In this document: in pieces, positions 2,523-26,442 of the stretch
Layout of the letters: every line of letters starts with the position of its first letter
Numbering within the stretch: the stretch's first letter is position 1
Origin: Ziziphus jujuba
Taxonomy: Eukaryota; Streptophyta; Magnoliopsida; Rosales; Rhamnaceae
Direction: 5' to 3'
Assembly (NCBI RefSeq): GCF_031755915.1
Contig: NC_083379.1
Coordinates: 46,942,001-47,006,000, forward strand
Length of the DNA: 64,000 nucleotides
Notes under the pieces: model-generated
What the model saw: the letters and a program-made list of their open reading frames with translations, nothing else
Database searches by the model: none
What the model was told of the DNA's origin: nothing
Program-made: the position numbers and the translations under genes

Positions 2523-4087
2523 TTTTTCTATATATTTAGATGTGTTTCTATATATTTAGGGGTCCCAAGTGGCTGCAATCTACGATACAAGTGAGTAAGC
2601 ATTGACTTGTGTTCATAGGACTTCTTCTGTGACGAACATAGCAATCTTCTGCACAATCTTTATAGCACGTATATCTAAATGTAGCCAATTCCTTTTTTTT
2701 TTGGTCTGTTTGTTTCTGAAGGAGGAGAGAATATCAGATTTTGAGAGGGAGGATTTATTACTATTGTATCAGCTCCAGCTGCTTCCACTTTCCATTACTA
2801 ATAAAACCTTGACGATCATTAACATATTGAAGATATTCATCCGCTCCACAACTGGGTTTTTTTTTTTTTTTTGGGTAAATTAAATTTCTTTATCCAAATC
2901 CAGGGTTAATTTAAGGTGATTTGAAATTTGACTACTTTTTAATTTTTGGTGATAAAACAGTTGTTAATTTATTTTTAATTTAGTATGTGTTTCCTTTCAT
3001 TAAACAAAAAGTTGATTAACCAACTAACAATATATATACGCTTTCTGCTCTGTTAATCGACTGAAGGGTCGCCACCAATCGAGTTTAATTTGGTACCGCA
3101 CATATTATTCTATTTTCTTAATTCCTTCATACATACAATTAATTTTGTGAGGTAAATATTTTAGGTGTGAGAGCAGATAATATATTTAGTTAATTAACTC
3201 TTTTTTTTTTTTTTTCACTTTCATGGTACATCTGAAAAGATTTCTTCAAAAACAAAAAACCATACATCTGAAAAGATGTTTTTACCACGTAATAAACTTT
3301 CAAGTTAATCAATCATTAATTTCAACAAATGAGATTGGAAGCCAAAGAAAAAAAAAAAAACAAAAAAATCAACAAAGTAGATGTAACCACCTCCACCTCC
3401 AAAAGCAGCAACACCACCGTCAGCAAATCTGCAACGCTTGTTGTCCCGCCCACTAGGTTGGGGACAGGGGATATCATATTTTAATTCGCTCATGCAAATT
3501 TAGATTTCAAGTTCCTTTTATAATATTATCTATCAATTAAACTAGTTTCAATAATTTGTACTTAATATGTAACTTACCTAAATTTATGTAAGTAGTCGTG
3601 CATGCGGTTGAATTATATGTTATATTATAAATAATTTTGCGCCCCGTGCAAATCTTTCGTTTCCTTTTGTTTTGTTTTTTTTTTATTTTTTATTTTTTAT
3701 TTTTTTTGGGCTCCAGTACTCTCCTTCTACACGAGAAATTTTACTTTAATTTTACTTATTGAAAGGGAAAAAAAAAAAATTTCTTATTACGGTAATTTGA
3801 AATTTTAAAATTTTGTTCTTCTTACTGTGAAATGTGGTTGGCTTATCGGAAAAATAAAACCAAACAAAAACAGGCGACAAACAACAGAAATTCTTTATTA
3901 AAATCTTTTTTGTTTCAAATAGTACTCCACGTTAGTCCCCGGTAACCCAGCTGTAAGCTTCTGGAACTTTTTATCTTTAATCTATGGTCAGCTGGTTTGT
4001 TAGCTTGCTTGTCAAACTGGCCTTTTCATAAAAAATAAAAAAATAAAAATCTATGGCCGCATTGACAGTAATACTGCAACAAGTACA
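708..4087. other. Intergenic, AT-rich, no convincing gene
   Basis: The stretch holds many homopolymer and TA runs (for example a TA microsatellite near 2495-2521) and one peptide-gene relic (2700-2840, listed separately). A box-B-like GGACTCAAACCC at 1887-1898 (reverse GGGTTTGAGTCC) hints at an old minus-strand tRNA-derived SINE between about 1810 and 1930, and a similar GTTCGAACGTCC lies near 2414. No ORF here has codon structure or homology that I recognise. Confidence 0.5.
2700..2840 (-). pseudogene. Degenerate paralogue of the 579-707 small peptide ORF
   Basis: Read on the minus strand from ATG at 2840, the bases align with the 707-579 ORF: shared stretches include AGGTT.TA.TAGTAATGG, GTGGAAGCAG and TCCTCCCTCT. 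The reading frame hits a stop after the leader. In the next frame it continues as GAD....NPPSQNLI, which parallels GGDPYKVPPPSNDLL in the other copy. This looks like a duplicated peptide gene broken by a frameshift. Confidence 0.35.
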
Positions 4088-8794: not shown

Positions 8795-9304
8795 ATGAAA
8801 GTTAACGTTTCCCACTCTTTCTTCTTGCTTTTCTTTGCTTTTCTTTCTGTCCAAGCTAGAATCATACCTGGTAATCCCGCAGTGAATCCAGGTGTTAATA
8901 TTAATTCTAATAAGATAAGCATGATATTAAGACATGCATTTGGAAGACCATCGCCAAGCCCTCCACCATCTCCATCTTCATCTACATCTCCCATTCATTC
9001 AGCATTTTCGACCCCTTGTGCCGCGCCCTCATATGATCAGAACAAACTCATGAGCCACTTAACACAAATACTACTTCCTCATTCCCGAAGCGGCTCGTCA
9101 TCGGTATTAATGCATCCGGTAATGGAGAAACTACTTACGGCTGATGATCATGGTGGGATAGTAATCGCCTCTCCTCCTTGTTCGACGGAGAATTTTCTCG
9201 AAAAGCCAACTCCAAGCCCACCTCCGCCACCTCGGGGATCAACACCACCGTCTAATAGATTTATAAGCATGATAAGTGATAACGGAAGGAGCTCTTCGTC
9301 TTGA
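8795..9304 (+). CDS. Secreted proline-rich peptide precursor (unassigned family), 169 aa
   Basis: A single-exon ORF. I chose the ATG at 8795 and not the in-frame one at 8723, because 8795 begins a clean signal peptide (hydrophobic residues 8-19, cleavage after VQA at about 21) and aligns with the start of the paralogue at 19826 (both read MKVN). After the leader come a first proline block RPSPSPPPSP (51-60), a middle region with a single Cys pair, and a second block [10 protein letters not shown] (138-147). A short motif, SNKISMI / SNRFISMI, occurs before the first block and after the second. The Ser-Pro-Pro runs would suit prolyl hydroxylation and arabinosylation in the secretory pathway. 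Its place in the cluster suggests a signalling or wall-associated peptide, but I do not recognise the family. Unlike its relatives it has no intron. Confidence 0.6.
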   Translation: MKVNVSHSFFLLFFAFLSVQARIIPGNPAVNPGVNINSNKISMILRHAFGRPSPSPPPSPSSSTSPIHSAFSTPCAAPSYDQNKLMSHLTQILLPHSRSGSSSVLMHPVMEKLLTADDHGGIVIASPPCSTENFLEKPTPSPPPPPRGSTPPSNRFISMISDNGRSSSS

Positions 9305-9322
9305 TTAATAAATGTTTGTAGC

Positions 9323-9354
<32 letters not shown>

Positions 9355-10382
9355 GATATATAGCTAGAAACCTGATAATTAGAAAATATTTGTAAGAAAA
9401 TTTTTATTATTATTGTTCTTTTTATCTGAAATGAAGGGATTCCAGCCTTGACTATTAATGTTAAGATAAGATCATTGAGAATGTATACAAGAAATCTAAA
9501 TCCAAATTAAACAATGCATGCATAATAGTTTTAACACTTTGTTTCCCTATTATTAATCTCCTCTAATTGTGCTTTCAGTACTCGTACGTCCGTTTCAAAT
9601 TATATATCTACATTAAGTATTAATATGTTCGAAAGCACTAAAGCTTGGATCCAATGCCAAGCTCGCCTTGATTAGATCCATGGGAAATTTTTAAATGGAA
9701 GATAGGAAAATGACTCTGGTCGCAAACCTTATTATACTTCATATTATTCGTTAGTCCGAGCTAACATTTCAATTCCATGCCAAGCTGGCAGGATCTTCAG
9801 TGCGGACTGTATTTGACTATTTACTAAAAATATTCAAAAATACAAATTAGCCTTATGATCGAAATCAGGTGAACTACAATATAACGGTCAACGTTTATTT
9901 ATTTATTTATTTATTCTATTTTCATTAGATTAGATTTTAGAGGAAACCACGCGGAATCATTGATTTTGACATATGGTATGAAAAAAAGTATGACCATTGA
10001 GCAAAGACGAAGCCTTCTAACTGAGAAAATTAATCAGCTTGGACCATGGTCTCCGTAATATATCACTGTGGTATTAAAGCCCGTGATCTAAAAGTGGCAT
10101 GATCCACAGTCCATGTTAGCTTAATTATTTATTAGAAAGCAGTATTTAGAGCTTAATTAATTTGTTTGAGAGCGGAAAACATAAAGGCAGCGAATGCATC
10201 GTCAATATCCATCCAATGATCTGCGGTTTTGCATTGGATTGGATTGCCAAAATTTTATAAACATTTTCTAAGCTTTTTAATCATTTATTATATTTAAAAA
10301 TTAGGCAACAACCTTAATCTGCAAACTATTTCTTTTATATTTTATATTCCATCACTACAAAAGAATGAAAAATGTAAAAAAC

Positions 10383-10417
<35 letters not shown>

Positions 10418-10776
10418 TTCATCATCTAAAGCTTAAACTATTGGACGAAAAATAATAATTCAAATTGAAACCAAAACCAAACATAGTTTAAAATTTCAGA
10501 AAAAAATGTTAATTCAATTAGCAAAGTGCATGTAAAACTGCATACATTTTGAATGGAAGAGAAGCATGGATTAGTAGTTGGGCAATGTGGGGTGGTAGCC
10601 ATGCATGTGACATTTGAACAACAATGCATCTACAAAAATTCACAAGAGACTAAAAAGTTTTGATCCCAATAATTAGCTATATATATGGTTCAGAGTTTGT
10701 ATGTATATTATATTATATACTTTTTCCTATAAATAAGAAAGTTCTGAATTCCTTTTTGATGATCAAAATAAACTCT
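9305..10776. other. Intergenic, no gene seen
   Basis: AT-rich sequence with a TA run just after the stop codon (9333-9353) and an AAT microsatellite (about 10383-10415). ATCACTACAAAAGAA at 10351 is vaguely CACTA-like but has no partner. I see no supported gene. Confidence 0.5.
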
Positions 10777-10962
10777 ATGGGAGGTAGATCCATGAAGAAG
10801 ATTAATGGCTACACGTCCACCGGTACCCTGTTTCATATATATCTCATTATTTTTCTTGCTACTTCCCCAACCTCTCCGTTGGTAGAAGCAAGAGTATTAC
10901 AAGGTACGTAGCATGATATTAATATGCAATATTACTCTTTTTATATTTAATCACATATACAT

Positions 10963-11006
<44 letters not shown>

Positions 11007-11222
11007 TTTCTGAATTGAGGATCTAACAACATGTTGTTTTGCTATTGCACTGTAGGGTCGCAAAGCAACCTATTTACGAGGATTGATGGATATTATGCTG
11101 GCCGCCCCGAGACACCACCGCCACCACCTCCAGGAGTGGCACCAGCACCCCACACCTCATCTACATTCATCCAACAGAGTTCTATCTCTTTCTACTCTCC
11201 CACCTATGCATCGACTCGTTGA
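10777..11222 (+). CDS. Secreted peptide precursor with Pro-rich tail, 97 aa, two exons
   Basis: Exon 1 is 10777-10903 and exon 2 is 11056-11222. The intron has GTACGT at the donor and CTGTAG at the acceptor and interrupts a Gly codon (phase 1). The start at 10777 could also be the in-frame ATG at 10792. The leader is strongly hydrophobic (LFHIYLIIFLATS) and ends at VEAR. The mature part reads SNLFTRIDGYYAGRPETPP and then a run of six prolines. It is a clear paralogue of the gene at 14628: same intron position and phase, same leader ending in VEAR, and a shared pattern of basic residue, (I/V)D-x-Y, then poly-Pro. Asp next to Tyr followed by prolines is how tyrosine-sulfated plant peptides such as PSY and CIF look, so a hormone role is possible, but this is inference. 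Confidence 0.6.
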
Positions 11223-11960
11223 ACATGCAGATAATTAATATTAACTGTGCACCGTCCAATTATGATTAAAGTATAATAAATTGATCTCTTAAATCTGTTG
11301 TACTGGACCTACCGGTGCTGTAATTAAGTGATCAATTAGTACTACAGCATTGAACAATTGCTTTTCAATATTCCTCTTAACTTTTTATTTTCAAACTCCT
11401 GATCACTGTATTATGGAAATAATGAGCTTGCCATCGAGATGTTTGCTTCAAATAATTCACTCAGTTTGTAATTTTGTTTTAATAGTTAATTAGTATTTGT
11501 GCACGTATTTCCTTTGCTACATGTAGCATTTTTATCTGAACCAATCTTTTGAACATTAAAATTAATTTGACAGTAGTTTCATTGAAATTAATTTTCCAAA
11601 AATTTTAGAATTGATTAAACAATCGATGGATATTCCTATTAAATAATGTTTCATATACGCATCCAATTTTACTTCAATTTTTTGGTGCTAGCTACTTAGC
11701 TAGCCTACTTCCACAATCTCTGATCTTTTGCTTGAAAAAACACATTTCCAAGGTACAATTTTTTGGTGCTGGTAATTGACCCTGGAGGCAAGAGGTAATG
11801 GTGAAAATCGATTAATATATGTAATGAAAAATCAAAAGCTAAAAAGGTTATTTATTATCAAGAACAATAAATTATGCAAACATTTAGAACAAAAATATAT
11901 ATATCTTAAAAATATCCAAGTTATGCGCATCTTTTATTTGTTTTGTAAAGGAAAAAGTTA
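11223..11960. other. 3' flank and intergenic, no gene seen
   Basis: This probably includes the 3'UTR of the peptide gene (AATAAA at about 11274). An ORF at 11776-11961 has no recognisable features. Confidence 0.4.
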
Positions 11961-13796
11961 GATCAAACGGTAAAACATTGGCTAAAAATTAAGAGACGGA
12001 AGAATATTTTATATGATAAATGTTTAAAAAAAAAAAAAACAAACAAAAAAAGTGTTTTGACTTTAAGGAAATTGTGTGGTTTGGTATATTCCCACCGACG
12101 AAAGACTGAAGAAGCTCTGCCAATTTATAATTTATAATTGAGAGACTTGACAGGGAGTTCATGATGACCAATTATTGGTGCATAATTTTTTTGGCTGAAA
12201 AACTATGTACGACAGGTTGGTTTTGCAGTTATGAAGAGCATAAAGGAAATCGTTAGAGATATGTTAAGCAAGTAGTTCGTTTAATTAATTATACATATCT
12301 AATGCTCTTAATTAAGCTTGATTTGAGTTTTTGCTTAATAAAGCTTGCCCTGCTAACTTAATTAAGGTGTTCCTATATCCAGACCCTCTTTAAAAATAAA
12401 AAATTACAAAACAAACTCAGACCTTATGTATATAGTTCTGTCAAGAAAAATAAAGTAGAACTCGGACATTAATTAGTATCTTAATCACATGTTAAAAAAG
12501 TTAAGAAAATTAAGTGAAAAGAGACGAAAAAATAGTACAAAAATAACAATATGAAGTTTTCAAAATTGAAATAATCTTGATCTTAATTAATTTTCCTGTA
12601 TATATATCTACCTGTCGAGCTTTTCATCTGTATTGTCAACGGCGGTCTTTTAACTCGTTTGATCAGATCCTTGAGACTACATTATGACTGAACCATTCCC
12701 TATTGATTATACATTTAATTTTACTGAGTAAAACTTTTTTTCAGTTTTTGTTGGAAGAAAAATATTATAAATTCAATTCGTTGGTGCATACTGAAATTGA
12801 TAAAGTGACATTTTTTGTTACTTGTACTCTAACAGCTCTATCTCATAACTAAAATTCAAAGCATTGAACTTCAGATTATTAATTATTATTAAATAAAGCC
12901 TTTTTTCCCTCTCTTTTTTAATCATTTGCACCTTTTTCAAGATGGACTAATTAATTTAATGATTAGGATTAGAATTTTTCACAAAATTAGGGAAATTAGG
13001 ATTAGAATTTCTCACAAAATTAAGGAAACTGACAAAAATGAATCACATAATTTTTCGTTGATAAAAAATTGTTCCTCTCGGAAAGCCCTTTTGCGGCAAA
13101 ATATAATATGGATCCCATATGTGAACATACACACTCATGGTGGTTGACCTAAACTTATGTTATTAAACTTATATATATTTAGTACAAGTGCTTAAATCAT
13201 CGACATATAAGTCCATGATTATGGTTTTTCAGCGCCAAAAAAAAAAAAAAATGTCCAAGATTATGGTTGGAACAAAGACGACTAGGACTGGATGTATGCT
13301 TCCGGTGACAATATTTGTTTTGATGTGTTGACTGATAACCATTCTTTAACAGACGCAACACGTTCTTTAACAGAGGCAACAGAAGCACGTGATGATAAGA
13401 CACAAAGTGATAACCTTCATCCAAGAAATGATAGACTTGCTGTACAGCTAACAGTAAAGAGTTAAAATGGTAAGTTCCATCATCTGTAACTTCATCAATC
13501 ATCTATAACCTTTTGTAGCCTCACATGGCCATGTAAACGTTGTAACTGGTTTGTAAACAGTATGTGAAGTATCTGTATTAATTAAAGGTTATTTGTTTAC
13601 CTTTCTTCATCATGAATTTCCGCATTTACCTCGACGTAAAATAAGTAATTAAACCGTACCAGTTCGTGTCTGTAAATAAATATTCAGTTTGCTCAACCTT
13701 TTGTGTCATAAATATCGTAGCAAAGTAAGCAAATAAGGCTTGAATACTATTGCTAGTCCACTAATCATGATGAAAGTTATGATAGTTAACATTTAA
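11961..13796. repeat. Segmental duplication copy A (pairs with 18037-19852)
   Basis: The two blocks align along their length. Shared landmarks are TATATGATAA followed by an A-run, GACTTTAAGGAA, TATAATTGAGAGAC, TTGGCTGAAAAACTA, GAGCATAAAGGAAATC, TAATTTTCCTGT, GAATTTCTCACAAAATTAAG, and TTCAGTTTGCTCAACC just before a peptide-gene ATG. The block therefore carries an upstream region plus the first codons of a gene. In this copy the gene is truncated (see 13767). Confidence 0.7.
13767..13796 (+). pseudogene. Truncated start of a peptide gene (copy A)
   Basis: After a promoter-like stretch that matches the one before 19826, an ATG opens ten codons reading MMKVMIVNI and then TAA. The intact copy at 19826 reads MKKFMKVNI and continues into its signal peptide. 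Similarity stops right after GTTAACATT. The TATA equivalent at about 13670 has changed from TATAAATAA to TGTAAATAA. The gene body is lost. Confidence 0.6.
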
Positions 13797-14627
13797 GCGC
13801 ATGTTATAGTAAATACTAACTTTTTATTGATAAAAAATAAATGTTGACTATTTTTTATTACAAATGTTAACTTTTTTTAACAAAATAAATAGATAATAAC
13901 TTTAATGTACTATAAAAATTAGGTTATTAATGGGATCTATATATAAATATAAAAAAAAAATTATTACTAAGCCAAAATGGTTCCCATAGAAACATTCTAG
14001 TGGTTTTGCCACCACTTTTTCTTATAAACTCAAGTTGGGATTTCAAATCCTCCATCCAATTACGATGATGATGATGATAATAATAATTACTATAATTGAT
14101 CTCAAAATGTTTATTCACCTATTTTATTAATGTATATGTGTTCATTGGGGAGTGATGTAAAATAGTTAAAATTCTTTTTAACAAAAATATAAAATTCCTT
14201 TCTTAACTCATGTGTTTGGTCAAAAAGAAATGCTTTGTAATGATTTTAGCTTTTATAAGATCACCTATTTGGTTAGAAAAATATTATTTATCATATTTAG
14301 TATGAAATTCAATAAAATTCACATAGAATATGATAATTTAATTGATGATCTAGAAAAAATTTGTTTTTCATATTAAATTTTTAGTAAACAAATTAATATA
14401 ATAATTAAATATTTATTATACCATGGATTTCTCTAATGCTCATTAACAGTACAAATATCAAATCAAACTCATTTGGTTATTATGAGGAAAAAAAAAAAAA
14501 GTTATTTAGATTATTAGATTCCTACGTACGTAATCATTTCCATACATGGCTGAAGTAAGTGTATGCATCTAAAGCCTTTAAAAATCACGAAGGCTTGTTG
14601 AAAACCCCAAATGATATCTATCTGCAG
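13797..14627. other. Intergenic, no gene seen
   Basis: AT-rich sequence between the truncated copy and the next peptide gene. No clear TATA box or repeat boundary could be set. The last 70 bases are probably the leader of the gene at 14628. Confidence 0.4.
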
Positions 14628-14993
14628 ATGAAGATGAATCACAAGTCAACCAGCACCCTGTTTCTTCTCTATCTCATCACTTTTCTTGCTACTTCCTCAA
14701 CCTCTGCACCGGTGGAGGCAAGAGATTTTTATCAAGGTATTTAATCAATAATAATAATATCATCGTACGTATAGCTTATCTCCTTGAAAGGATCAGTATG
14801 TTTTGCACCTAGTTCGTCCATATATAATTAATTATTTTATGTTCTAATTACTTTAATCTTTAGTTTCGTCCATATATAATTAATTATTTTATGTTCTAAT
14901 TACTTTAATCTTTAGTCCATCAGATAGATCTGGAGATCTGTATACAATTATATATTGTTTTGCTTAAATAATGTCTGAATTAAGGTTTTTATT

Positions 14994-15029
<36 letters not shown>

Positions 15030-15512
15030 CTGTGTGTATAATTAACAATTTATCACATTAGAATATTTTGATTTTATAAAAAGTAAAAATATAATATATA
15101 TCAACCATGATAAATTCATCATTTATATTTTATTTTGACTTAGTTAAACTATGTTTTAAATTTATGAAGTAGTTCATAAAATTGGTATATCTTGATCTAA
15201 TAATTAGTGATATAATAAAGTAGTTTATAAGTTCTAAGAAGTTTATTAATTTGTAATGGCTACGTACTTTGGATTTATATGATTCTGTGCTGATATTTAT
15301 TAATTACATGTTGTTTTCGATACTTTACTTTCTGATTATATATATATATATATATATGGTCAGAAAGCAAGTTATATGCGAAGGTGGATAATTATGGAGC
15401 CCCACCACCTCCAAAACCAGCTATATATACCACCGAAGCCCAGCAACGGATCCGAGAGATCTCCTCCTCCTTCTCCTCCTGCTATCTACACCGGCCTCCA
15501 GCTGCCAGCTGA
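14628..15512 (+). CDS. Secreted peptide precursor with Pro-rich motif, 85 aa, two exons
   Basis: Exon 1 is 14628-14736 and exon 2 is 15364-15512. The phase-1 intron (GTATTT...GTCAG) is at the same place as in the paralogue at 10777. The leader (TLFLLYLITFLATSSTS) is nearly the same as in that gene and ends at VEAR. The mature part reads KLYAKVDNYGAPPPPKPAI and ends with a Ser-rich stretch holding one Cys. The D-N-Y-G-A-P-P-P-P core is reminiscent of sulfated and hydroxylated peptide hormones (Asp before Tyr, then prolines), but no named family fits well. The exon 2 acceptor was chosen because it keeps the shared reading frame. An in-frame ATG two codons later is an equally good start. Confidence 0.6.
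14813..14915. repeat. 52-bp tandem duplication in the intron
   Basis: Two back-to-back copies starting TTCGTCCATATATAATTAAT (14813 and 14865) appear identical, which suggests a recent event. It lies inside the intron of the 14628 gene, 76 bp after the donor site. Confidence 0.8.
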
Positions 15513-15957
15513 ATATGCAGTCAACATTAATTAATATTATTTCAAGCATGGCAAATTTAAGATCTTTTATCACTTAAATATTTAGGATGCTTTTTGTTTT
15601 AATTTCTTCTTGCTCATCTCGCTATTTAGAATGTTTTATCACATAATGTGGGTGGGTCGCAATATTTGTCTTTAGGGAGCACGGTACTCCTGCAGTACTG
15701 AAATTTACTCCTGCACGCCAGCCATGCATTATGATGAGAATCACTATTCACCAAATTCATATATTTACTCCTCCTATATAATATATTATGCTGTGTTTGG
15801 GCATCGTGAGATATTATACTATATATTTTGATTTTTGTTAAAATAAACATATACAAATATATATATATATATATATATTTATAATTTATTATTATTCATG
15901 TAGCTTTTATAATAATTTAATTAAGAACATTTATCCATTGTATGAAGAAATAGAGCC

Positions 15958-15989
<32 letters not shown>

Positions 15990-16309
15990 CGAAAACGAAA
16001 ACGAAAACGAAAGGGGGAAAAAAGACAATGGTAGAGAGGGAAAACGGAAGCATCAGCTTAAAAAAAACACAAAAATCATGGAAGCAGCTTCCACCAAAAA
16101 TAGGAAAAAAAAAAAAAAAAAAAAAAACTTTTTTTTTTTTCAGCTTAAAATCTAGTACCAACCTTTTGCTTTATATTAGTTATACCAGATCGACCATATA
16201 AAACAGAGTTGATCAGATTTGACCGTATTGAGTTGTACGGAACATATGTATCACCAAACTTACTATTTCATACATTCCAACCTTCTTACACCGCGTGCCA
16301 AACAAGCCC
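15513..16309. other. Intergenic, low complexity
   Basis: It holds TA runs, a long A tract followed by (CGAAAA)n at about 15962-16014, and another A/T tract at 16104-16140. The ORFs in this part are poly-Lys or poly-Phe artefacts of these tracts. Confidence 0.5.
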
Positions 16310-18036
16310 TCACGGCATTATTGGAACTTCGTGGGTGGTGCTTTATGATGAAAAGTAAACCAAAACAGCATCTTTTGGCTCAAAGGAATATCTGTAAGAA
16401 CTGTTCCGCGTGCCAATAATTGAAAGGGTCTCATTTCTGGTGAATTTCTTTGCATCAAAAACCTATTACGTACATCTAGCAAACAAAAAAAAAAAAAAAA
16501 CCTATTACGTACGACCGCAAATGATTTGAAGTCTCGCACTTCCTTTTTCTGTTTCTCCCTTTGGCTTTTTCATCTTTTTCTTTTTGTATTCGTTTTCAAT
16601 ACATTATGGCAGTGCTCTCTAAAATGTGGGAAAAGACATCTCTGGACGTTTTAGGCGTGATGTTTTTAAATAATTAACAAAGGTTATAAAAAAATAGTCA
16701 AAGTTGTGTTGACCGTTTAATACGTTCCTAAGCGCTAAAAAGTATAAATTTTCTTGTTCAAAATTTTTTATTTCTAAAATTATTTTTTAAAAAATATTAA
16801 AAAATAATTTATAAAAAATTAAAAAACAAAAAATATTGTTAAAAAATAAATAAAATTTTAAGATTAAATTTTTTTTCATAAACAAAAAAAATAAAAATAT
16901 AATGTATAAGGTGAGAAAGTTATTCTTGACTGATAAAGGAAAGTTGTTTTTTATTGAATAAGAAACTAATATTTATATACATGTACAGTTGGTGTAGATG
17001 ACTACAAATGAGTAATGATAAAAACTATTTACAACAGATAAGGGAATCTTGAAGATAGACTCACGTGAACTACTAATCTCTATCATAAGGACTAAGGAAT
17101 TAGGGAGAAAATTTAACCCAAAAGAAAAAGAAAAAATGAAATAAAATAAAGAAATTCTCAAGTTGAAATTAGAAAGCCTGAGGAAAATGATTTTGTATCG
17201 GATGGCACGGAAGATAAGTAGGAAGGAAATATAGATATTGAATTGAAGTCCGATAAAAAATTAGATAAGAGTTAGATTATGGTAATAACTAAAGTATGTA
17301 TTAATCTATAAATTATTAGGTATTTATAGGTTTGTAATATATATATTTTGAAACTAATTTGTTTTTGGAAAATTAGAAAACATGAATTTTCATAAATCTA
17401 TTATAATCGATTACATGCTAATTCATGTTTATTGCACATATAAGGTAATATAGATTTTATATATACTTTGACATTTAAAATATAAATTATTTTATTTATT
17501 TAGTAGTCTTATAATAATTCAAATAATAATATAATTATAAAATGCCTTTTTAAATTTAGGCACACCTAGGCTTCTAAGACTTAAAACTTGATCTTATCGC
17601 TTTGCAATGCCTTACGCCTTTTAAAACACTGCATTATAGTGAACATGCTTTAGTACATGCAGGACACATTTGCTTATAGTGTTATGGGATGAGATACTTA
17701 AGCTTAAGGTATGCAAATAGAAATTTATTTCCAAAAACACATTTCAGCTCTAATAGGAAACAAAAACAGTTTTTTTTCCACTGTTCTGGACCATGTTCAA
17801 TTTGATGTTACTGTTCCCTCTTCGATGGATCCCCGGATGAAAACTGAGTTGGGTTAACATTTCCTAACGATTTTGCCACCTGTTGGTTGAGGAAAATAAA
17901 CTCACTAAGTTAACAGAAGAACTTTCTGATTGATTACCAAATCCCCCGTTTTTAATCAACTTTGCAATATGAAAATAATCTTTAAAAACAGAGAAAATAA
18001 ATAAAATTTTGAAAAACAAAAAATCCAATTTCTTGG
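16310..18036. repeat. Segmental duplication (pairs with 34795-35480)
   Basis: Both ends of this block match the distant copy: AAGTAAACCAAAACAGCATC at 16354 (copy: AGTAAACCAAAACAACATC at 34838), and at 17676-18010 shared runs such as GAAATTTATTTCCAAAAACA, GATGTTACTGTTCCC and GAGTTGGGTTAACATTTCC. The distant copy lacks about 1 kb in the middle. No coding sequence is seen in either. Confidence 0.65.
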
Positions 18037-19852
18037 CATCAAACCGCAAAACATTTTCTAAAACTTAAGAAACGGAAGATATATTATATGATAAGTGTTA
18101 AAAAAAAAAAAAAAAAAGTCTTTCTGACTTTAAGGAACATGTGGGATTTGGTATGTTTCCATAGAAAAAAAAAAAAAAAATCATGTGGTGTTTGGGCCAT
18201 CTATTTTTACATTATCGTTCTATAAATTTCTAACATTTAACAAAAATTATTAATACAATATAAAATGATCAATGTAATTTAATGTCTTGGATTTTTTATT
18301 ATAAATTTTATAACATGTTAAAAGATTTACGAAAGGACCATATAAAATTAAATGGTTCAGAGACCATAAATATTTTTCAGACTAAAAATCTCTACCAATT
18401 TATAATTGAGAGACATGAGAGGGACTTCATGACCAAATGGTGCTTAATTTTTTTTGGCTGAAAAACTACGATAGGACTGCTTGGTTTTGTAGTTGTTAAG
18501 AGCATAAAGGAAATCCTTACAGATATATGTTAAGCAAGTAGTTCGTTTAATTATACATGTCTAATGCTTTTAATTAAGCTGGATTTGATTTTTCGCTTAA
18601 TAAAGCTTGTCCTGTTGCCTTAATTTATGTGTTCCTACCTCCAAACCTTCTTTGAAAATAAAAAATTAAAAAACAAACTCAGACCTTATATAGTTCTGTC
18701 AAGAAAAATAAAATAAAACTCGAACATTAATTAGTGTCTTAATCACATGTTAAACTAAGTTAAGAAAATTAAGTCAAAAGAGAAGACAGAATAGAAAGAA
18801 TAATAACAATCTGAAGTTTTCAAATTTGAATTGATCTTGATCTTAATTAATTTTCCTGTCTATATATATATATATATATATATATCTACTTGCCAAGCTT
18901 TCCATATGAAGTGCGAAAGGCGGTCTTTTAACGCGTTTAATCAGATCCTTGAGACTACATTAACCGAACCATTCCGTGTTGATTATTACATGTTTTTAAC
19001 AATTATTTTAATGAGGAAACTTTTTTTAGTTCGTGTTGAAAGGAAAAAAAATTAAAAATTCAATTAGTGGGTGCATACTGAAGTTGATAAAAGTGACATT
19101 TTTTATTACTTTTACTCCAACATCTCTCTCATATCATAAAATTCAAAGCACTAAACTTCAGATTACTGTTATTATTTCGTACCAAAAAAAAAAAAAAATT
19201 ATTGTTATTATTAAATAAAGTCTTTTTCTTTTTCCTATTTTTTTAATCGTGTGCACCTTTTTCAAGATGGACTAATCAATTAATTTAATGGACTAGGATT
19301 GAGAATTTCTCACAAAATTAAGGAAACTGACAAAAATGGATCACATAATTTTTTGTTGTTAAAAAATTGGTCCCCTCGGAAGGGCAAAATGTAATATCGA
19401 TCCCATAGGTGAACATACACACTCACAGTGGTTGTCCAAAACTTACATCTTTTTTAAACTTTTATTCAGTAACAATAAAAAGATATTTTAACATATATAA
19501 ACTTTTAAAGTTTTTTTTTTTTTTTTTGAGCCCTTTTTGTGCCTAAATGTACAAGTGCTTAAAACATCGACATAAGTCCGAGATTATGGTTGGTGCAAAG
19601 ACGGCTTGGACTGGGTGTTTGCTTCTCGTGACAAATATTTTTTTTTTGAAGAGTTGACCTTGACCCAAAATGAGTAATTAAACTTACCAGTTCGTGTCTA
19701 TAAATAAATATTCAGTTTGCTCAACCTTTTGTGTCATAAGTGTTTGCAAGTATTTCAAGGGGAAAAAAAAAAAGTGTTTGCAAGTAAGCAAACAAGGTTG
19801 GAATACGATTACTACTCCACTAGTCATGAAGAAATTTATGAAAGTTAACATT
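18037..19852. repeat. Segmental duplication copy B (pairs with 11961-13796)
   Basis: This is the partner of copy A, and it includes the promoter and first codons of the gene at 19826. Here the gene continues into a full signal peptide. Copy B adds a TA run near 18860 and a T tract near 19510. Confidence 0.7.
19699..19708 (+). promoter_or_regulatory. TATA box of the peptide gene at 19826
   Basis: TATAAATAAA lies 118-127 bases before the ATG, inside a stretch conserved with copy A (TTCGTGTCTATAAATAAATA). Confidence 0.55.
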
Positions 19853-22800
19853 CATTGTCTCTTGCTTCTCTTTGCTTTTCTTCCGGTACTTGTAATTTCC
19901 GTTCAAGCAAGAATCTTACCAGGTATTAGTTAACGTCTTCTCCTCGGCTTTATAGTTAATATATTATCCTAAAAAAGATTGTAAATCATTTATGCAAACT
20001 CTGCATATATTTTCTTAATTAAAAGAGAAAAATATATTTGCTCTCTTTTCCTATTTGTTAGAGTTTGTGACCTGAATTCTTGTTGACCCGACCCGAAAAG
20101 CTCGCGGTGCGACCCATTTGGTGAAACTAAATTTTGGAGAAAAATTTGGGGCTCTGTGGTGGAAGCGGAGGTCTCGGGCCGATAGGCCCGAGACCGTAGC
20201 CCACCACTGAGCCCGATGGGTTAAGAAGGTATCGCGCAGTCAGGCTCACCTTTTGTACCAATCTTTCGATATTGGATTTGTTCTCCCTGCCCGTGGTTTT
20301 TCCCGTCAAGGGTTTCCACGTTAATTTTGTGTTTGTTCTTCGCTTTCTTTGTTTCCGTTGCTATTTGTTTTTCTCCCAATTCCGTAACAAGTGGTATCAG
20401 AGCCGCATCGATCTATTTGGGAATTTTTTTTTTTTTCGATCATGGCAACAAAGTTCGACATTGAGAAATTTGAGCGCAACATGAGTTTCTCCATGTGGCA
20501 AGTCAAGATGAAGGCGATTTTGACACAGAACGGTTTACACAAGGCGTTGGTTGGCAAGGAGCAGATGCCGTCTTCGTGGGATGCCGAAAAGAAAGCCGAG
20601 GTTGATGAGCGTGCCCTATCCACCATTCAGCTATGCTTGTCCAATGAAGTTTTGAGGGAGGTCCTTGATCAGAAGACAACAAAGGACTTATGGGACAAGT
20701 TGGAATCTTTGTACATCACAAAGAATCTCACAACGAAACTGATTGCGAAGCACCGTCTATACACCCTTTCTATGGTTGAAGGTACATCTATTAAAACACA
20801 CATAGATGATTTTTCTACTATTTTGTTGGATCTGGCAAACATGGATATTAAATATGATGATGAAGATCAGGCCCTAATGCTACTGCGTTCCTTACCTCCA
20901 TCGTATAAAAATTTTAGGGAGACTTTGATTTATAGTAATAAAACCCTAAAATTGGAGGATGTGAAAGCTTCTTTATATTCTAAGGAGTTGTTTGATAAGG
21001 AGTTGACCAGCAGTTCGGATAACAATAATTTTGGGAGTTCCGGAGGAGAGGGTCTGATTGTTAGAGGTAGAACATCATCTAAAGATCAAAATAACAATGG
21101 TGGTAGTCAGCCAAGATCGAAGTCAAGGTTCAGAAACCTTATTTGTCACTACTGTAAGAAAAAGGGGCACATCAAAACTGAATGTCGTAAGCTTCAGAAT
21201 AAAAATAATGAAAAGAGTAAGGAACATGCCGAAGCCAGTGTCGCACATGAGGAAATTGAAGATGGAGATGTTTATTCAGTGACTGAGGATAGTTCGGGCA
21301 AGCAGGGATGGATTTTGGATTCAGCCTGTTCGTTTCACATCTGTCTCCATAGGGATTGGTTCTCTTCTTATGTTCCGGTGGATAAAGGTGTTGTGCTGAT
21401 GGGAGATGATCATCCTTGCTGTGTCATCGGCATTGGAACTGTAAGGGTGAAGATGCATGATGGAATTATCAGAACACTATCTGAGGTACGTCACGTTCCA
21501 GATATGTCTAAAAATTTAATTTCTTTATCTGCTTTGGACAAGTCTGGTTGTTCTTTTGCTGGTGGAGGTGGAGTTTTGAGGGTTCTGAAGGGTGCTTTGG
21601 TGGTGATGAAAGCTAGCCTGGTTGGTACATTATACAGGCTACAGGGTTCTGTGGTAATGGGGTCGGCTGCTGTTTCAGTGTCCATGTCAGATTCGGATGT
21701 TACTCGTTTGTGGCATATGAGATTGGGCCATATGAGTGAGAAAGGTTTGGCGATGTTGAGCAAACGGAGTTTGCTTGGCGATCGGAGTATCTCGAAGTTG
21801 GAGTTTTGTGAACATTGTGTGTTTGGAAAGCAGAAGAGAGTTAGCTTCAGTATTGGAATTCACAAAACCAAAGGTACTCTAGACTACATTCATTCAGATC
21901 TTTGGGGACCCGCACGTACTGCTTCTAAGGGTGGTGGCAGATATATGTTGACCTTCATTGATGATTTCTCCAGGAAGGTCTGGGTATATTTTTTGAAGCA
22001 CAAGAATGACGTATTTGCTATCTTCAAGCAATGGAAAGCTTTGGTAGAGAAGCAGACGGAAAGAAGGGTGAAGCGCCTTCGTACAGATAATGGATTGGAG
22101 TTCTGTGATGGTGTTTTCAATGAGTTTTGTAGAAACTAAGGGATCGTTAGACATCTCACAGTTAGAGGAACTCCGCAGCAAAATGGTGTGGCTGAGCGGA
22201 TGAACAGAACTCTTATGGAGAAAGTCCGATGCATGCTGTCGAATTCTGGGTTAGCACAGGAATTTTGGGCAGAAGCAGCTGCTACAGCTTGCTACTTGGT
22301 GAATCGTTCTCCATCGGCAGCAATCGATTGCAAGACTCCTGAAGAGGTATGGTCTGGAAAACCTGCTAATTATCTAGATTTGAAGGTATTTGGATGCCCT
22401 GCCTATGTTCATGTTAATGATGGTAAGCTTGAGCCTAGATCGAAGAAGGGCATATTTCTTGGTTACCCGCAGGGTGTAAAAGGATATAGAGTTTGGCTTC
22501 CTGATCCAAAGTCATCTAAGGTTGTGATTAGCAGGGATGTTGTGTTTGATGAGATGGCAATGCTGCATCCGAAAAAGGAGCTCGTTGTTTCAGACAGTGT
22601 GCCAAAGCAGGTGGAGTTTAGAGTGGAGGAAGTAAGTACTTCACAGAATGGTTCAGTTTCAGGCCCATTTGAGACACCCACTCATGTGGAAGAAGAGAGA
22701 ATTGAGGAGGTGCAGGAGCATTCGATTGCCAAGGATAGACCTCGCAGGGAGATCAAGAAGCCCTCTAGTTTAGCAGACTATGTCACTTTTGCTTGTGTTG

Positions 22801-25800
22801 CAGCACAGGAGATCGAGAGTCCCAGTGATCCTTGCAACTATCATGAAGCCATTTCATGTGAGGATTCTGCAAAGTGGTTAATTGCTATGCAGGAAGAGGT
22901 GGAGTCGCTTCATAAGAACCACACTTGGGAGTTAGCATTACCTCCAGAGGGTAAGAAGATTGTGGGATGCAAGTGGGTCTACAAAAAGAAAGAAGGCATC
23001 CCTGGTGTTGAAGATGCGAGGTACAAAGCACGTTTAGTAGCGAAGGGGTATTCACAGGTACAGGGAGTTGATTTTAATGATATATTTTCCCCTGTCGTTA
23101 AACATACTTCTATTCGTGCTTTGTTAGCGCTAGTTGCTATGCATGATTTAGAGTTGGAGCAACTAGATGTGAAGACCGCTTTCTTGCATGGTGAGCTTGA
23201 GGAGACAATTTATATGCAGCAACCCGAAGGTTTCGAGGTTGAAGGAAAAGAGGATCATGTGTGTTTGTTGAAAAGGTCCTTGTATGGTTTGAAGCAATCC
23301 CCTCGTCAGTGGTACAAGTGGTTTGATGGGTTTATGTTTAGCCATGGCTATTCTAGAAGCCAATATGATAGCTGTGTGTATTTTAGGAAGTTGGAAGATG
23401 GCTCATTTATCTATTTGTTGCTTTATGTTGATGATATGCTGATAGTGGCCAAGAAGAAATCCGATATCAACAGATTGAAAGCAGAATTGAGTGGTGAATT
23501 TGAGATGAAAGATTTGGGAGTGGCAAAAAAGATTCTTGGTATGGAGATTGAGAGAGATAGATCTGCAGGTAAACTTTTCTTGACTCAAAGATCTTTTGTT
23601 GAGAAAGTTCTGGAGCGTTTTGGAATGAAGAACGCTAAACCTGTAAGTACTCCATTAGCTACTCATTTTAGATTGTCTGCTGATATGTCACCACAGTCGG
23701 ATAGAGATATTGAGTATATGTCACATGTTCCTTATTCTAGTGCTGTTGGTAGTTTGATGTATGCTATGGTGTGTACCCGTCCTGACATTGCACATGCTGT
23801 TAGTGTTGTGAGCCGGTATATGGCTAATCCTGGCAAACAACACTGGCAAGCTGTCAAGTGGATTCTAAGGTACTTGAGAGGCACTACTAACACTTGTTTA
23901 GAGTTTGGTGGAAGTAAGGAGGGTGTACGTGGATATGTTGATGTAGATTTTGCTGGGGACCTTGATAGAAGGAGGTCCACTACTGGTTATGTATTTACTC
24001 TTGGAGATACTTCTATCAGTTGGAAGTCTGTTTTGCAAGCAACAGTTGCACTATCAACTACAGAAGCTGAATATATGGCTATAGCTGAAGCGGTGAAAGA
24101 AGCTATTTGGTTAAGGGCGTTGATAGGTGAGTTGAGCTCTGAGCAGGAGAGTACGGTTATCAATTGTGATAGTCAGAGTGCTATCTATCTCACTAAGGAT
24201 CAGATGTTTCACGAGAGGACAAAACATATAGATGTTCGGTATCATTTTGTACGTGATGTTATTGCTCGTGGAGATATTGTTGTCAGCAAGGTGAGTACTC
24301 ATGATAATCCTGCTGACATGATGACCAAGGCACTTCCAGTAGCCAAGTTTGAGCATTGCTTGAACTTGGTTGGTGTTTGTTGTTGAGCTTTGCCTTTAGG
24401 GGCTTTTGTGGAAGAGGATGGCAACTTTTATCGAAGATTGGAGTTTTGTATGTTTTTCATTCCTTATATGGAATTCGTGTCAAGGTGGAGATTGTTAGAG
24501 TTTGTGACCCGAATTCTTGTTGACCCGACCCGAAAAGCTCGCGGTGCGACCCATTTGGTGAAACTAAATTTTGGAGAAAAATTTGGGGCTCTGTGGTGGA
24601 AGCGGAGGTCTTGGGCCGATAGGTCCGAGACCGTACAAATCTTTCGCTATTGGATTTGCTTCTCCCTGCCCGTGGTTTTTCCCGTCAAGGGTTTCCACGT
24701 AAACTGTGTGTTTGTTCTTCGCTTTCTTTGTTTCCGTTGCTATTTGTTTTTCTCCCAATTACGTAACACTATTATATCCACAGAATAGTTAGATAACTAT
24801 TAGTTCTATATGTACGTCTTTGAAACTTTTGCTTTATTAGTCTTTGTTTAAAAGCTCGTCCAAAAGCCTAAATCATTTCTAGCTAGAGAAATGTCCAAAA
24901 AGTTTCAAAAGCTATTTTGGAATCGTTAAGGCTAAAAGTACGTAGCATTTTAGAAGCATGCTTATAAACATATATGTAAGATCTAGTAATTTGCAAGGCA
25001 TATATGTATAGATATAAGGTCCAGCTAGTTGAAAGGCATACATATATGCACGCAAAAACTCATTTTCATTTTTCTATTATTTCAAAATAAATAAATAAAA
25101 ATAAAATGATACCGTTCTCAAAACTCAACTTTGTCAGAACTTATGAAAAATTGATTTTATTCCTTTTCCAATCGATTCTTTATGCATATATATATTGTTA
25201 CGGAATTGGGAGAAAAATAAATAGCAACGGAAACAAAGAAAACGAAGAACAAACACAGGACTTACGTGGAAACCCTTGACGGGAAAAAACCACGGGCAGG
25301 GAGAAGCAAATCCAATATCGAAAGATTGGTATAAAGGTGAGAAAAACTGCGCTATACCCTAAAACCCCAATTACAGCCGCAAAACCCCAAAAGAATAAGA
25401 AATATATATACGGAAGAAACCCTAAAATTGAACAGGTCCGTACCCGACGGGGGTGCGGCCCGAGACCGTAGCCCACCACTGAGCCCCAAATTTTTCTCCA
25501 AAATTAGTTTCACCAAATGGGTCGCACCGCGAGCTTTTCGGGTCGGGTCATCAAGAATTCGGATCACTAACTCTAACATATATATATATATATATATTGT
25601 TAGTAATTACTTAATTCAGACTAATTAATTATGTCATAAGATTATATATCTCTGATCTATCTTTAATTACTTCTATTTCCAAAGACAATGAGTTGAGCAT
25701 GATAAGGAAAAGTGTTCATGGAGGAACACCCCCGAGCCCATCTCCACCTCCAACTACGACTCCATCAACAATAATTTTTATTACTCCTCGTGATTCAGTT

Positions 25801-25989
25801 GTGAATTATAAACTGATGGTCCGGTTGATTGAAACAAATGACGTTGCTCATGATCATGATCGATATTACAAAGGCGAGTCATCATGCAAAACAGCACCCA
25901 AGCCAAGTCCACCTCCGCCTCCACGGAAAAGACCACCCATTACTCCAGTTTTATCATCGCCTTCCAATATGTATATTGCTTCCTCTTAA
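19826..25989 (+). CDS. Secreted proline-rich peptide precursor split by a Copia insertion, 133 aa
   Basis: Exon 1 is 19826-19922 and exon 2 is 25685-25989. The phase-1 intron (AG|GTATTA...AAAG) is 5762 bp, of which about 5.1 kb is a Copia element and a solo LTR. Without them it would be about 650 bp, like the 627-bp intron at 14737. The leader is hydrophobic ([18 protein letters not shown]) with ARILP after it. Exon 2 gives a first proline block PPSPSPPP (48-55), an acidic/His middle region with D-R-Y-Y, one Cys, and a second block [13 protein letters not shown] (105-117). It is the closest relative of the gene at 8795: same leader end, same two proline blocks, same SMI motif before block one. 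Function unknown. Both splice sites are intact, so it may still be expressed if the long intron is spliced. Confidence 0.6.
20056..20389 (+). repeat. 5' LTR of the Copia element, 334 bp
   Basis: TG...CA ends. Compared with the 3' LTR it has roughly nine substitutions by eye and an extra segment of about 60 bp after GGCCCGAGACCGTA. Confidence 0.9.
20392..20404 (+). other. Primer-binding site (initiator tRNA-Met type)
   Basis: TGGTATCAGAGCC begins two bases after the 5' LTR and is the standard complement of the 3' end of plant initiator tRNA-Met used by Copia elements. Confidence 0.9.
20442..24386 (+). pseudogene. Copia gag-pol polyprotein with one in-frame stop
   Basis: Begins at the ATG at 20442 ([17 protein letters not shown]). 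Domains in order: gag (UBN2-type) to about 21080; zinc knuckle [14 protein letters not shown] at 21144-21185; aspartic protease around [12 protein letters not shown] at about 21309-21345; GAG-pre-integrase [10 protein letters not shown] at about 21710; integrase core with D-L-W-G-P, then DNG, in about 21890-22300; reverse transcriptase with [12 protein letters not shown] and YVDDM at about 22890-23600; RNase H to about 24330, ending at a normal stop at 24384-24386. A TAA codon at 22137-22139 interrupts the integrase core, and the frame is otherwise open on both sides. No frameshift is seen. The stop would separate gag-protease from reverse transcriptase. Confidence 0.92.
24482..24491 (+). other. 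Polypurine tract
   Basis: AAGGTGGAGA lies directly before the 3' LTR, where plus-strand DNA synthesis is primed. Confidence 0.75.
24493..24768 (+). repeat. 3' LTR of the Copia element, 276 bp, internally deleted
   Basis: Same ends as the 5' LTR, but about 60 bp are missing right after GACCGTA. The joint falls between two copies of GTA(C), so a short-homology deletion is likely. The lost part lies in the middle of the LTR. Confidence 0.9.
24774..25190. other. Residual intron sequence between two insertions
   Basis: Host intron DNA of the 19826 gene, AT-rich, with GCAAGGCATATATGTA and GAAAGGCATACATATATG forming a short diverged direct repeat near 24993 and 25033. Nothing else is seen. Confidence 0.5.
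25196..25578 (-). mobile_element. Solo LTR of the same Copia family, opposite orientation
   Basis: On the minus strand it reads from TGTTAGAGTTAGTGATCC to CCCAATTCCGTAACA, matching the LTRs at 20056 and 24493 at both ends and in the blocks GGGTCGCACCGCGAG and GGTTTCCACG. It is 383 bp and carries a middle region absent or different in the other two LTRs, so it belongs to a longer subfamily. TATAT flanks both sides (25191-25195, 25579-25583). This fits a target duplication, but the surrounding TA repeat makes it weak evidence. No internal region remains. Confidence 0.88.
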
Positions 25990-26167: not shown

Positions 26168-26256
26168 AAGCGAAGTCCACCTCCGCCTCTTTGGAGAGTA
26201 CCATCCCCTAATCCAGTTTCGTAATTATAGTCTCCTAATATGTGTATAGCTTCCTC
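26168..26256 (+). pseudogene. Duplicated 3' tail of the peptide gene
   Basis: AAGCGAAGTCCACCTCCGCC and the following ACCATCCCCTAATCCAGTTTC, then TATGTGTATAGCTTCCTCT, match the last 90 bases of the gene ending at 25989 (AAGCCAAGTCCACCTCCGCC ... ATGTATATTGCTTCCTCT). It has no start, leader or first proline block and contains an in-frame break, so it is a remnant of a tandem duplication. Confidence 0.65.
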
Positions 26257-26442
26257 TATATATAACACAATGACTTGAAGATGAGCAGATTTGATCATTT
26301 ACAACAGTTAGATTATTATATATCATATCAAATCTATCACATTAATACATATAATCCAATGGTTCTAAATAATTGAACTTATTATACCCTCAACTTAAAA
26401 ATAGTTGGTTTTGCTAAGTAAACCACTTACACTTATGGTTAA

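What the first reader, a model, noticed from the sequence alone, without database searches (positions are those of the whole stretch)
8795..25989. Cluster of unassigned secreted proline-rich peptide genes
Four complete and several broken genes share a hydrophobic leader ending in (V)QAR or VEAR. A phase-1 intron follows right after the leader in three of the four, then a short mature part with Pro runs. They form two subtypes: 10777 with 14628, and 8795 with 19826. I cannot place them in a named family, and short lineage-specific peptide families are often missed by annotation. They could be hydroxyproline-containing signalling peptides.
Basis: partly seen in the sequence, partly recalled or inferred. 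Interest (0 to 1): 0.75.

Follow-up and report, generated by a model that had tools for sequence, protein, structure and literature searches.

The report
HypSys-like peptide gene cluster in Rosales
A plant chromosome stretch carries a small cluster of genes whose products look like precursors of hydroxyproline-rich systemins, wound and defence peptide hormones that reviews describe only from the nightshade and morning-glory families, which would push the origin of this hormone family far back in flowering-plant history.

Summary
Four open genes lie at 8795-9304, 10777-11222, 14628-15512 and 19826-25989, plus fragments. They share a leader ending in QAR/EAR; three have a phase-1 intron just after it. 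The last gene's 5.8-kb intron holds a copia element and a solo LTR. The family can be placed. A profile of the longer proteins (B1, B2) finds an unnamed Rhamnella protein (E 3e-18) and a Prunus protein mislabelled formin-like (E 6e-3). These Rosales proteins match Solanaceae preproHypSys, precursors of hydroxyproline-rich systemin: a Solanaceae-only profile scores four Prunus proteins 36-40 bits (highest block shuffle, 200 each: 15.9), and profile-profile comparison gives probability 96%, E 2.7e-9, above 200 of 200 scrambles of two kinds, also without leaders. The shared plan is leader, ARx[LIF], pro-region, YGR-like motif, PPxP/SSPP blocks. The window genes reach Solanaceae only through Prunus: direct scores are weak, the leader carries much of B2's score, and A2 is placed only by kinship with A1. 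Best reading: a tandem cluster of HypSys-type precursors in a Rosales-like plant, a family that the reviews seen confine to Solanaceae and Convolvulaceae. Expression, processing, hydroxylation and activity are untested.

The parts
8795..9304 (+). Gene B1, single exon, 169 aa precursor: leader ending SVQAR (residues 1-22), then two proline blocks
   Evidence: relatives
8942..8998 (+). B1 proline block 1, GRPSPSPPPSPSSSTSPIH, aligned with the first HypSys position (YGR..PPPSPSSSPPTH in Prunus)
   Evidence: alignment; profile; coordinates worked out by hand from the model
9203..9259 (+). B1 proline block 2, [19 protein letters not shown]
   Evidence: alignment; coordinates by hand
10777..10903 (+). 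Gene A1 exon 1: leader ending LVEAR and the start of the pro-region
10904..11055 (+). A1 intron, 152 nt, phase 1, GT..AG
11056..11222 (+). Gene A1 exon 2: mature part with one proline block (AGRPETPPPPPPGVAPAPH at 11097-11153)
14628..14736 (+). Gene A2 exon 1: leader ending PVEAR
14737..15363 (+). A2 intron, 627 nt, phase 1, GT..AG
15364..15512 (+). Gene A2 exon 2: mature part with one short proline block (YGAPPPPKPAIYTTEAQQR at 15393-15449)
19826..19922 (+). Gene B2 exon 1: leader ending SVQAR
19923..25684 (+). B2 intron, 5762 nt, phase 1, holding a copia element and a solo LTR
20056..24768 (+). Copia-type LTR retrotransposon inside the B2 intron (LTRs 20056-20389 and 24493-24768, target-site repeat CTATT); its reading frame is interrupted
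   Evidence: copia class inferred from reading the polyprotein ORFs, no family scan run
25196..25578 (-). Solo LTR of a related element inside the B2 intron
25685..25989 (+). Gene B2 exon 2: mature part with two proline blocks ([18 protein letters not shown] at 25717-25770; [18 protein letters not shown] at 25894-25947)
13767..13796 (+). Broken B-type copy: nine codons then a stop, behind a duplicated B2-type upstream region
26168..26257 (+). Broken copy of the B2 C-terminal block
   Evidence: tblastn E 0.041; blastn 76% over 92 columns
3387..3446 (+). Possible remnant of a proline block; weak
   Evidence: tblastn E 0.004 with B1

Best explanation
The cluster encodes precursors of the hydroxyproline-rich systemin (HypSys) type. 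Each precursor would enter the secretory pathway by its leader, cut before the R of EAR/QAR. The proline blocks behind the G[RGA] motif would be hydroxylated and glycosylated on contiguous and Ser-Pro prolines. One (A type) or two (B type) glycopeptides of about 15-20 residues would be released in the cell wall as a wound or defence signal. Supported here: gene anatomy, and homology of the Rosales family (Rhamnella, Prunus, B1, B2, with A1 weaker) to Solanaceae preproHypSys. Inferred: expression, cleavage sites, hydroxylation, glycosylation, receptor binding and defence role.
For: A profile of B1, B2 and Rhamnella scores four Prunus proteins 43-49 bits; highest shuffle with the leader kept 30.2 (200 each). 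A Solanaceae-only HypSys profile scores the same four Prunus proteins 36-40 bits; highest block shuffle 15.9; with leaders removed 18.6-22.5 against at most 14.6 (300 each). hhalign Rosales vs Solanaceae: probability 96.2, E 2.7e-9, aligned over QARIL..YGR..PPSPxSSxPT. Nulls, observed/highest, 0 of 200 reached each time: column permutation 61.8/18.8, leaders removed 39.1/16.3; five-column blocks 50.3/41.2, leaders removed 38.4/26.8. Profile of Prunus plus Solanaceae without Rhamnella or window proteins: B1 21.5 bits (0 of 1000 block shuffles reach it), A1 16.1 (0 of 1000), B2 20.8 (4 of 1000). With the mixed query, 23 of 7977 scored candidates passed E<=10: 16 Solanaceae, 5 Rosales, 2 without a name. 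Among 2808 stop-to-stop pieces of the window the Solanaceae-only profile ranks A2 exon 2, A1 exon 2, B2 exon 2 and B1 at 1, 3, 4 and 6 (B1 tied with the fifth; scores only 5.5-9.0 bits).
Against: Direct comparison is weak. Solanaceae-only profile: B1 5.8 and B2 7.6 bits, reached by 6 and 2 of 200 block shuffles, A2 by 9. The profile of B1, B2 and Rhamnella scores the 17 sequences of the Solanaceae set only -10.7 to 11.3 bits, and 1 of 17 (P0017) stays above all 200 shuffles of each of the three kinds. With leaders removed, the Solanaceae profile does not tell B1, B2 and Rhamnella from block shuffles (81, 36 and 34 of 300), and the Rosales profile beats all 300 block shuffles for only 3 of 16 Solanaceae sequences. 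Against the Prunus+Rhamnella profile B2 scores 43.6 bits but still 37.4 with its mature part reversed, so the leader carries most of it; B1 does not behave so (34.7 against -3.1). A2 is within chance in most block-shuffle tests (239, 49 and 444 of 1000). The A-type search found no relative. Proline-rich sequence inflates similarity. The distribution found is patchy: Prunus and Rhamnella only, and the known sweet potato HypSys was not among the hits. B2 has HGG where Prunus has YGR. No transcript or peptide evidence. A survey of 11 species that included peach names HypSys only in tobacco in the passages I saw (PMC6668560).
Confidence: 0.7

Rival explanations
1. A lineage-specific secreted proline-rich signalling peptide family of Rosales that resembles HypSys by convergence: leader plus SPPP blocks arose independently.
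For: Direct window-to-Solanaceae scores are weak; with leaders removed the window B proteins do not beat block shuffles; proline blocks evolve easily; SCOOP2 is reported to carry a PPSPX motif too (PMC8591736 passage).
Against: Prunus proteins match Solanaceae precursors above composition-matched shuffles, with leaders removed too (18.6-22.5 bits vs highest 14.6, 300 each; hhalign). The order AR-x-L, pro-region, YGR, proline block, S-rich P block is shared.
Confidence: 0.2
2. Small structural cell-wall proteins (extensin or HRGP fragments) rather than hormones.
For: Proline is 13-19% of the mature parts, with SPPP and PPPPP runs.
Against: Only one or two proline blocks per protein and no long SPPPP array; no relevant Pfam match for the window proteins; none of the 23 hits is named an extensin (what the other scored candidates were was not shown).
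Confidence: 0.06
3. Decaying genes without function: relics of a tandem family broken up by transposons. This does not exclude HypSys ancestry.
For: Broken copies; the B2 intron swollen by a copia element and a solo LTR; no annotated counterpart of the window proteins among the search hits.
Against: Four frames open, three with GT..AG phase-1 introns; dN below dS in both pairs; B1/B2 conserved in Rhamnella.
Confidence: 0.12

Closest known systems
HypSys, hydroxyproline-rich systemin precursors (Nicotiana, Solanum, Petunia; sweet potato)
   Same: Secretory leader ending mostly in A[EQ]AR with leucine two residues on, short pro-region, YGR, then blocks with PPSP/PPPP and SSPP; one to several blocks per precursor
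   Different: B type and Prunus have R-I-[LI]-[PS] rather than R-T-L-L-E after the leader (A1 RVLQ, A2 RDFY); window precursors are 85-169 aa with one or two blocks, the Solanaceae hits 145-278 aa; direct similarity of the window proteins is weak; gene structure of Solanaceae HypSys could not be compared
Rhamnella rubrinervis FNV43_RR07085 and Prunus 'formin-like protein 14' proteins
   Same: Leader, pro-region and proline blocks; E 3e-18 and 5.6e-3 from the window profile
   Different: Unnamed or misnamed in databases; the longer Prunus proteins carry more proline blocks
SCOOP peptides
   Same: Secreted small precursors; some carry PPSPX (PMC8591736 passage)
   Different: Orthologues reported only in Brassicaceae (same paper, passages); the recalled SxS..GxG pattern is absent from the four proteins
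Systemin
   Same: Similar size and function to HypSys (passages)
   Different: Precursor without a leader and no sequence similarity to HypSys (passages)

Membership tests
HypSys precursor | N-terminal secretory leader | tested here: met
   Hydrophobic 15-residue maximum 1.7-3.0 (Kyte-Doolittle) before EAR/QAR in 4 of 4; no dedicated signal-peptide predictor was available
HypSys precursor | Sequence homology to known preproHypSys (Rosales family; B1, B2, A1 within it) | tested here: met
   Met for the Rosales family as a whole, carried by the Prunus proteins; for B1, B2 and A1 only through Prunus, direct scores being weak
HypSys precursor | Sequence homology to known preproHypSys, gene A2 alone | tested here: inconclusive
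   239, 49 and 444 of 1000 block shuffles reach its score in three profiles; linked to A1 by leader, intron and 51% identity
HypSys precursor | PPSPX motif in the proline block | tested here: inconclusive
   PPSP present in B1 and B2, absent in A1 and A2, which have PPPP runs
HypSys precursor | More than one peptide block per precursor | tested here: inconclusive
   Two in B1 and B2, one in A1 and A2
HypSys precursor | Hydroxylated and glycosylated mature peptides of 15-20 aa | not testable with these tools
   Needs peptidomics
HypSys precursor | Wound/jasmonate induction, alkalinisation and defence activity | not testable with these tools
   Needs experiments
CEP, PIP, IDA, CLE, SCOOP, PSK | Core motif of the mature peptide | tested here: not met
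   None of the patterns tried, written from recall, occurs in the four proteins
Extensin/HRGP (Pfam) | Pfam match | tested here: not met
   Only one sub-threshold, irrelevant match in four proteins; three Solanaceae HypSys tested have none either, so this is weak evidence

The most novel reading that the evidence does not exclude
HypSys is not an invention of Solanales: the precursor family was present before rosids and asterids split, survives in Rosales as tandem clusters, and has a second, single-peptide branch (A type) with its own proline block.
Probability: 0.55. Interest if true: 0.75.

Novelty: new member of a known kind. Interest (0 to 1): 0.6.

Why it matters
HypSys is described as a peptide family of Solanaceae and Convolvulaceae (passages in PMC11371470, and PMC8591736; table in PMC11756074), with its receptor listed as unknown (tables in PMC8591736, and PMC4621407). 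Orthologues in rosids would date the family to before the rosid-asterid split. They would offer Prunus and other Rosales as systems for testing wound signalling, and allow a receptor search by comparing which lineages kept or lost the peptide. They would also correct entries such as 'formin-like protein 14' in Prunus.

Tried and rejected
Pfam scans of the four window proteins gave nothing useful; three Solanaceae HypSys and the Rhamnella and Prunus proteins have no Pfam match either. The A-type pair searched alone found no relative among 171 candidates. Pairwise BLASTP of the Rhamnella and Prunus proteins against tomato HypSys was weak (E 0.095 and 0.034 per comparison), so profiles with shuffled controls were used. 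Other secreted peptide families were dropped on motif absence, using motifs from recall. No fold prediction was run: short proline-rich precursors are expected to be disordered. Copy number in the whole genome could not be had. The species was not identified; 'Rosales-like' is inferred from the best hits.

Rows dropped or mixed: the 23 hits come from a profile that contained both groups, so that search is not itself evidence of homology between them. P0012 (source without a name, Prunus-like) was left out of all profiles. P0020 (source without a name, Solanaceae-like) was kept in the Solanaceae set. P0021 (lacks a leader) was left out of A7 and of the leader-free and hhalign sets but kept in the full-length HMMs. 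Prunus sequences are close relatives of one another, so four matches are not four independent ones. Nine paper searches were seen as capped listings (6-30 rows each) of an open-access library that lacks most subscription journals; passages only were read in eight papers.
Full report
What is there. Reading the region and modelling splice sites confirms four open genes. B1 (8795-9304) is one exon. A1 (10777-10903, 11056-11222), A2 (14628-14736, 15364-15512) and B2 (19826-19922, 25685-25989) each have one phase-1 GT..AG intron three or four residues behind a leader that ends in VEAR or VQAR. Proteins are 169, 97, 85 and 133 aa. B1, A1 and B2 have a TATAAAT 105, 49 and 127 nt before the ATG; A2 has none by the pattern used. 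The B2 intron is 5762 nt long because a copia-type element (20056-24768, target-site repeat CTATT) and an inverted solo LTR (25196-25578) lie in it. The upstream DNA of B2 has a diverged duplicate (roughly 11962-13793 against 18038-19852, 73-89% identity in five pieces) that ends in a copy stopping after nine codons. A B2 tail copy lies at 26168-26257, and a weak remnant near 3387.

Relatives. The profile of B2 and B1 was scored on 7958 candidates (the tool's capped list) out of 5.8 billion clustered proteins; two passed E 0.01. They are a 139-aa hypothetical protein of Rhamnella rubrinervis (E 3.1e-18, 42% identity over 80%) and a 185-aa Prunus mume protein labelled formin-like protein 14 (E 5.6e-3). 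The Prunus protein has several blocks such as YGRKPPSPPPSPSSSPPTHH and RSRSPPPSPKPAPSHGEL. The A1+A2 profile found none among 171 candidates.

Placing it. The order AR-I-L, pro-region, YGR, proline block recalled HypSys precursors. A MAFFT alignment of Rhamnella, Prunus, tomato and tobacco precursors (the last two typed from recall) puts A-R-x-L, Y-G-R and several prolines in invariant columns. The first tobacco peptide, RGANLPPPSPASSPPSKE, is printed in a table of PMC10741408 (passage) and lies in the database protein P0004. A search with the alignment returned 23 of 7977 scored candidates at E<=10: 16 Solanaceae proteins, several of them named hydroxyproline-rich systemin, 5 Rosales proteins and 2 without a name. 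Because that profile mixes both groups, homology was tested with separate profiles.

Tests that support it. A Solanaceae-only HMM scores the four Prunus proteins 36.0-40.3 bits (block shuffles at most 15.9), Rhamnella 13.6 (at most 6.9) and A1 11.5 (block shuffles at most 10.0, plain mature shuffles 11.0). The HMM of B1, B2, Rhamnella and Prunus scores the 17 sequences of the Solanaceae set 0.3-23.9 bits, tobacco HypSys A highest; 11 of 17 are never reached in 200 block shuffles, five are reached 1-3 times, and one Petunia protein (P0023) 16 times. Profile-profile comparison gives probability 96.2 and E 2.7e-9 over 41 columns. Against 200 column permutations the score is 61.8 versus at most 18.8, and with leaders removed 39.1 versus 16.3. 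Against 200 permutations of five-column blocks, on alignments stripped of gappy columns, it is 50.3 versus 41.2, and 38.4 versus 26.8 with leaders removed. With a profile of Prunus and Solanaceae only, B1 scores 21.5 (0 of 1000 block shuffles), A1 16.1 (0 of 1000), B2 20.8 (4 of 1000) and A2 11.8 (49 of 1000); with Rhamnella added B1 28.2, B2 30.8 and A1 18.1 (0 of 1000 each) and A2 9.3 (239 of 1000). Among 2808 stop-to-stop pieces of the window the Solanaceae-only HMM ranks A2 exon 2, A1 exon 2, B2 exon 2 and B1 first, third, fourth and sixth, at low scores of 5.5-9.0 bits.

Tests that do not. The Solanaceae-only HMM gives A2 11.3, B2 7.6 and B1 5.8 bits, reached by 9, 2 and 6 of 200 block shuffles. 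The HMM of B1, B2 and Rhamnella, without Prunus, scores the Solanaceae set -10.7 to 11.3; only 1 of 17 (P0017) stays above all shuffles of all three kinds. With leaders removed, the Solanaceae HMM does not separate B1, B2 and Rhamnella from block shuffles (81, 36 and 34 of 300), nor A2 (25 of 300); A1 is reached by 2 of 300. The leader-free Rosales HMM beats all 300 block shuffles for 3 of 16 Solanaceae sequences. Against the Prunus+Rhamnella profile, B2 keeps 37.4 of 43.6 bits when its mature part is reversed, A1 is reached by 4 and A2 by 444 of 1000 block shuffles. So the window family is tied to HypSys through Prunus, not directly, and part of the tie is the leader.

How it would work. By analogy with HypSys, the leader is cut before the R of [QE]AR. 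In the tomato precursor as I recalled it, the pro-region lengths 24, 4, 25 and 16 of Table 1 in PMC11371470 (passage) fit a cut at that place, counted by hand, if the peptides are 20, 18 and 15 aa as in PMC4621407 (passage); Table 1 itself prints 18, 15 and 15. The proline blocks would be hydroxylated and glycosylated in the secretory pathway, and 15-20 residue peptides would be freed in the wall and sensed as a wound signal. The HypSys receptor is listed as unknown and its proteases as unidentified. All of this is inference for the present genes.

Known or new. Reviews state that HypSys was identified in Solanaceae and Convolvulaceae (PMC11371470 passage; PMC8591736 passage). A 2025 table lists only Ipomoea, Nicotiana, Solanum and Petunia (PMC11756074 passage). 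A survey of 11 species including peach and poplar, by BLAST with a 1e-9 cut-off, names HypSys only in tobacco in the passages I saw (PMC6668560; its figure not seen). In nine paper searches no listed title or abstract start reports HypSys from Rosales; the lists were capped and the library lacks most subscription journals. The protein distribution is a lower bound: the tool finds only relatives sharing exact five-residue words, and the sweet potato HypSys was not among the hits either.

Verdict. They are best described as a cluster of HypSys-type precursors in a Rosales-like plant: B1 and B2 supported through Prunus, A1 moderately, and A2 by its kinship with A1.

Noticed in passing
20056-24768: Copia-type LTR retrotransposon with CTATT target-site repeats; LTRs 95-98% alike over the aligned parts, one with a deletion; polyprotein frame interrupted near 22139.
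   Followed up: partly
25196-25578: Inverted solo LTR of a related element, about 0.4 kb from the copia element, also in the B2 intron.
   Followed up: partly
11962-13793 and 18038-19852: Diverged duplicate of about 1.8 kb carrying the B2 upstream region; the first copy ends in a truncated gene.
   Followed up: partly
4395-5406: Long imperfect inverted repeats (arms 68-87 nt, 72-85% complementary), possibly a foldback or MITE-like element.
   Followed up: no
29806-32713: Stretch from TGTAACACCCC to CCTGACA, seemingly flanked by ACCAT repeats (read by eye), perhaps a large LTR or other non-coding element.
   Followed up: no
55667-56923: Open reading frame for a pepsin-like aspartyl protease of the TAXi type.
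   Followed up: no
P0002 and P0003 (database proteins, no window coordinates): Prunus proteins labelled 'formin-like protein 14' in public records look like HypSys-type precursors; the label is probably an artefact of proline runs.
   Followed up: yes
8871-8914: In B1 the place of the intron is taken by an open 44-nt stretch that begins GT and ends AG (read by eye), too short for a normal plant intron; B1 may have lost or shortened the intron.
   Followed up: no
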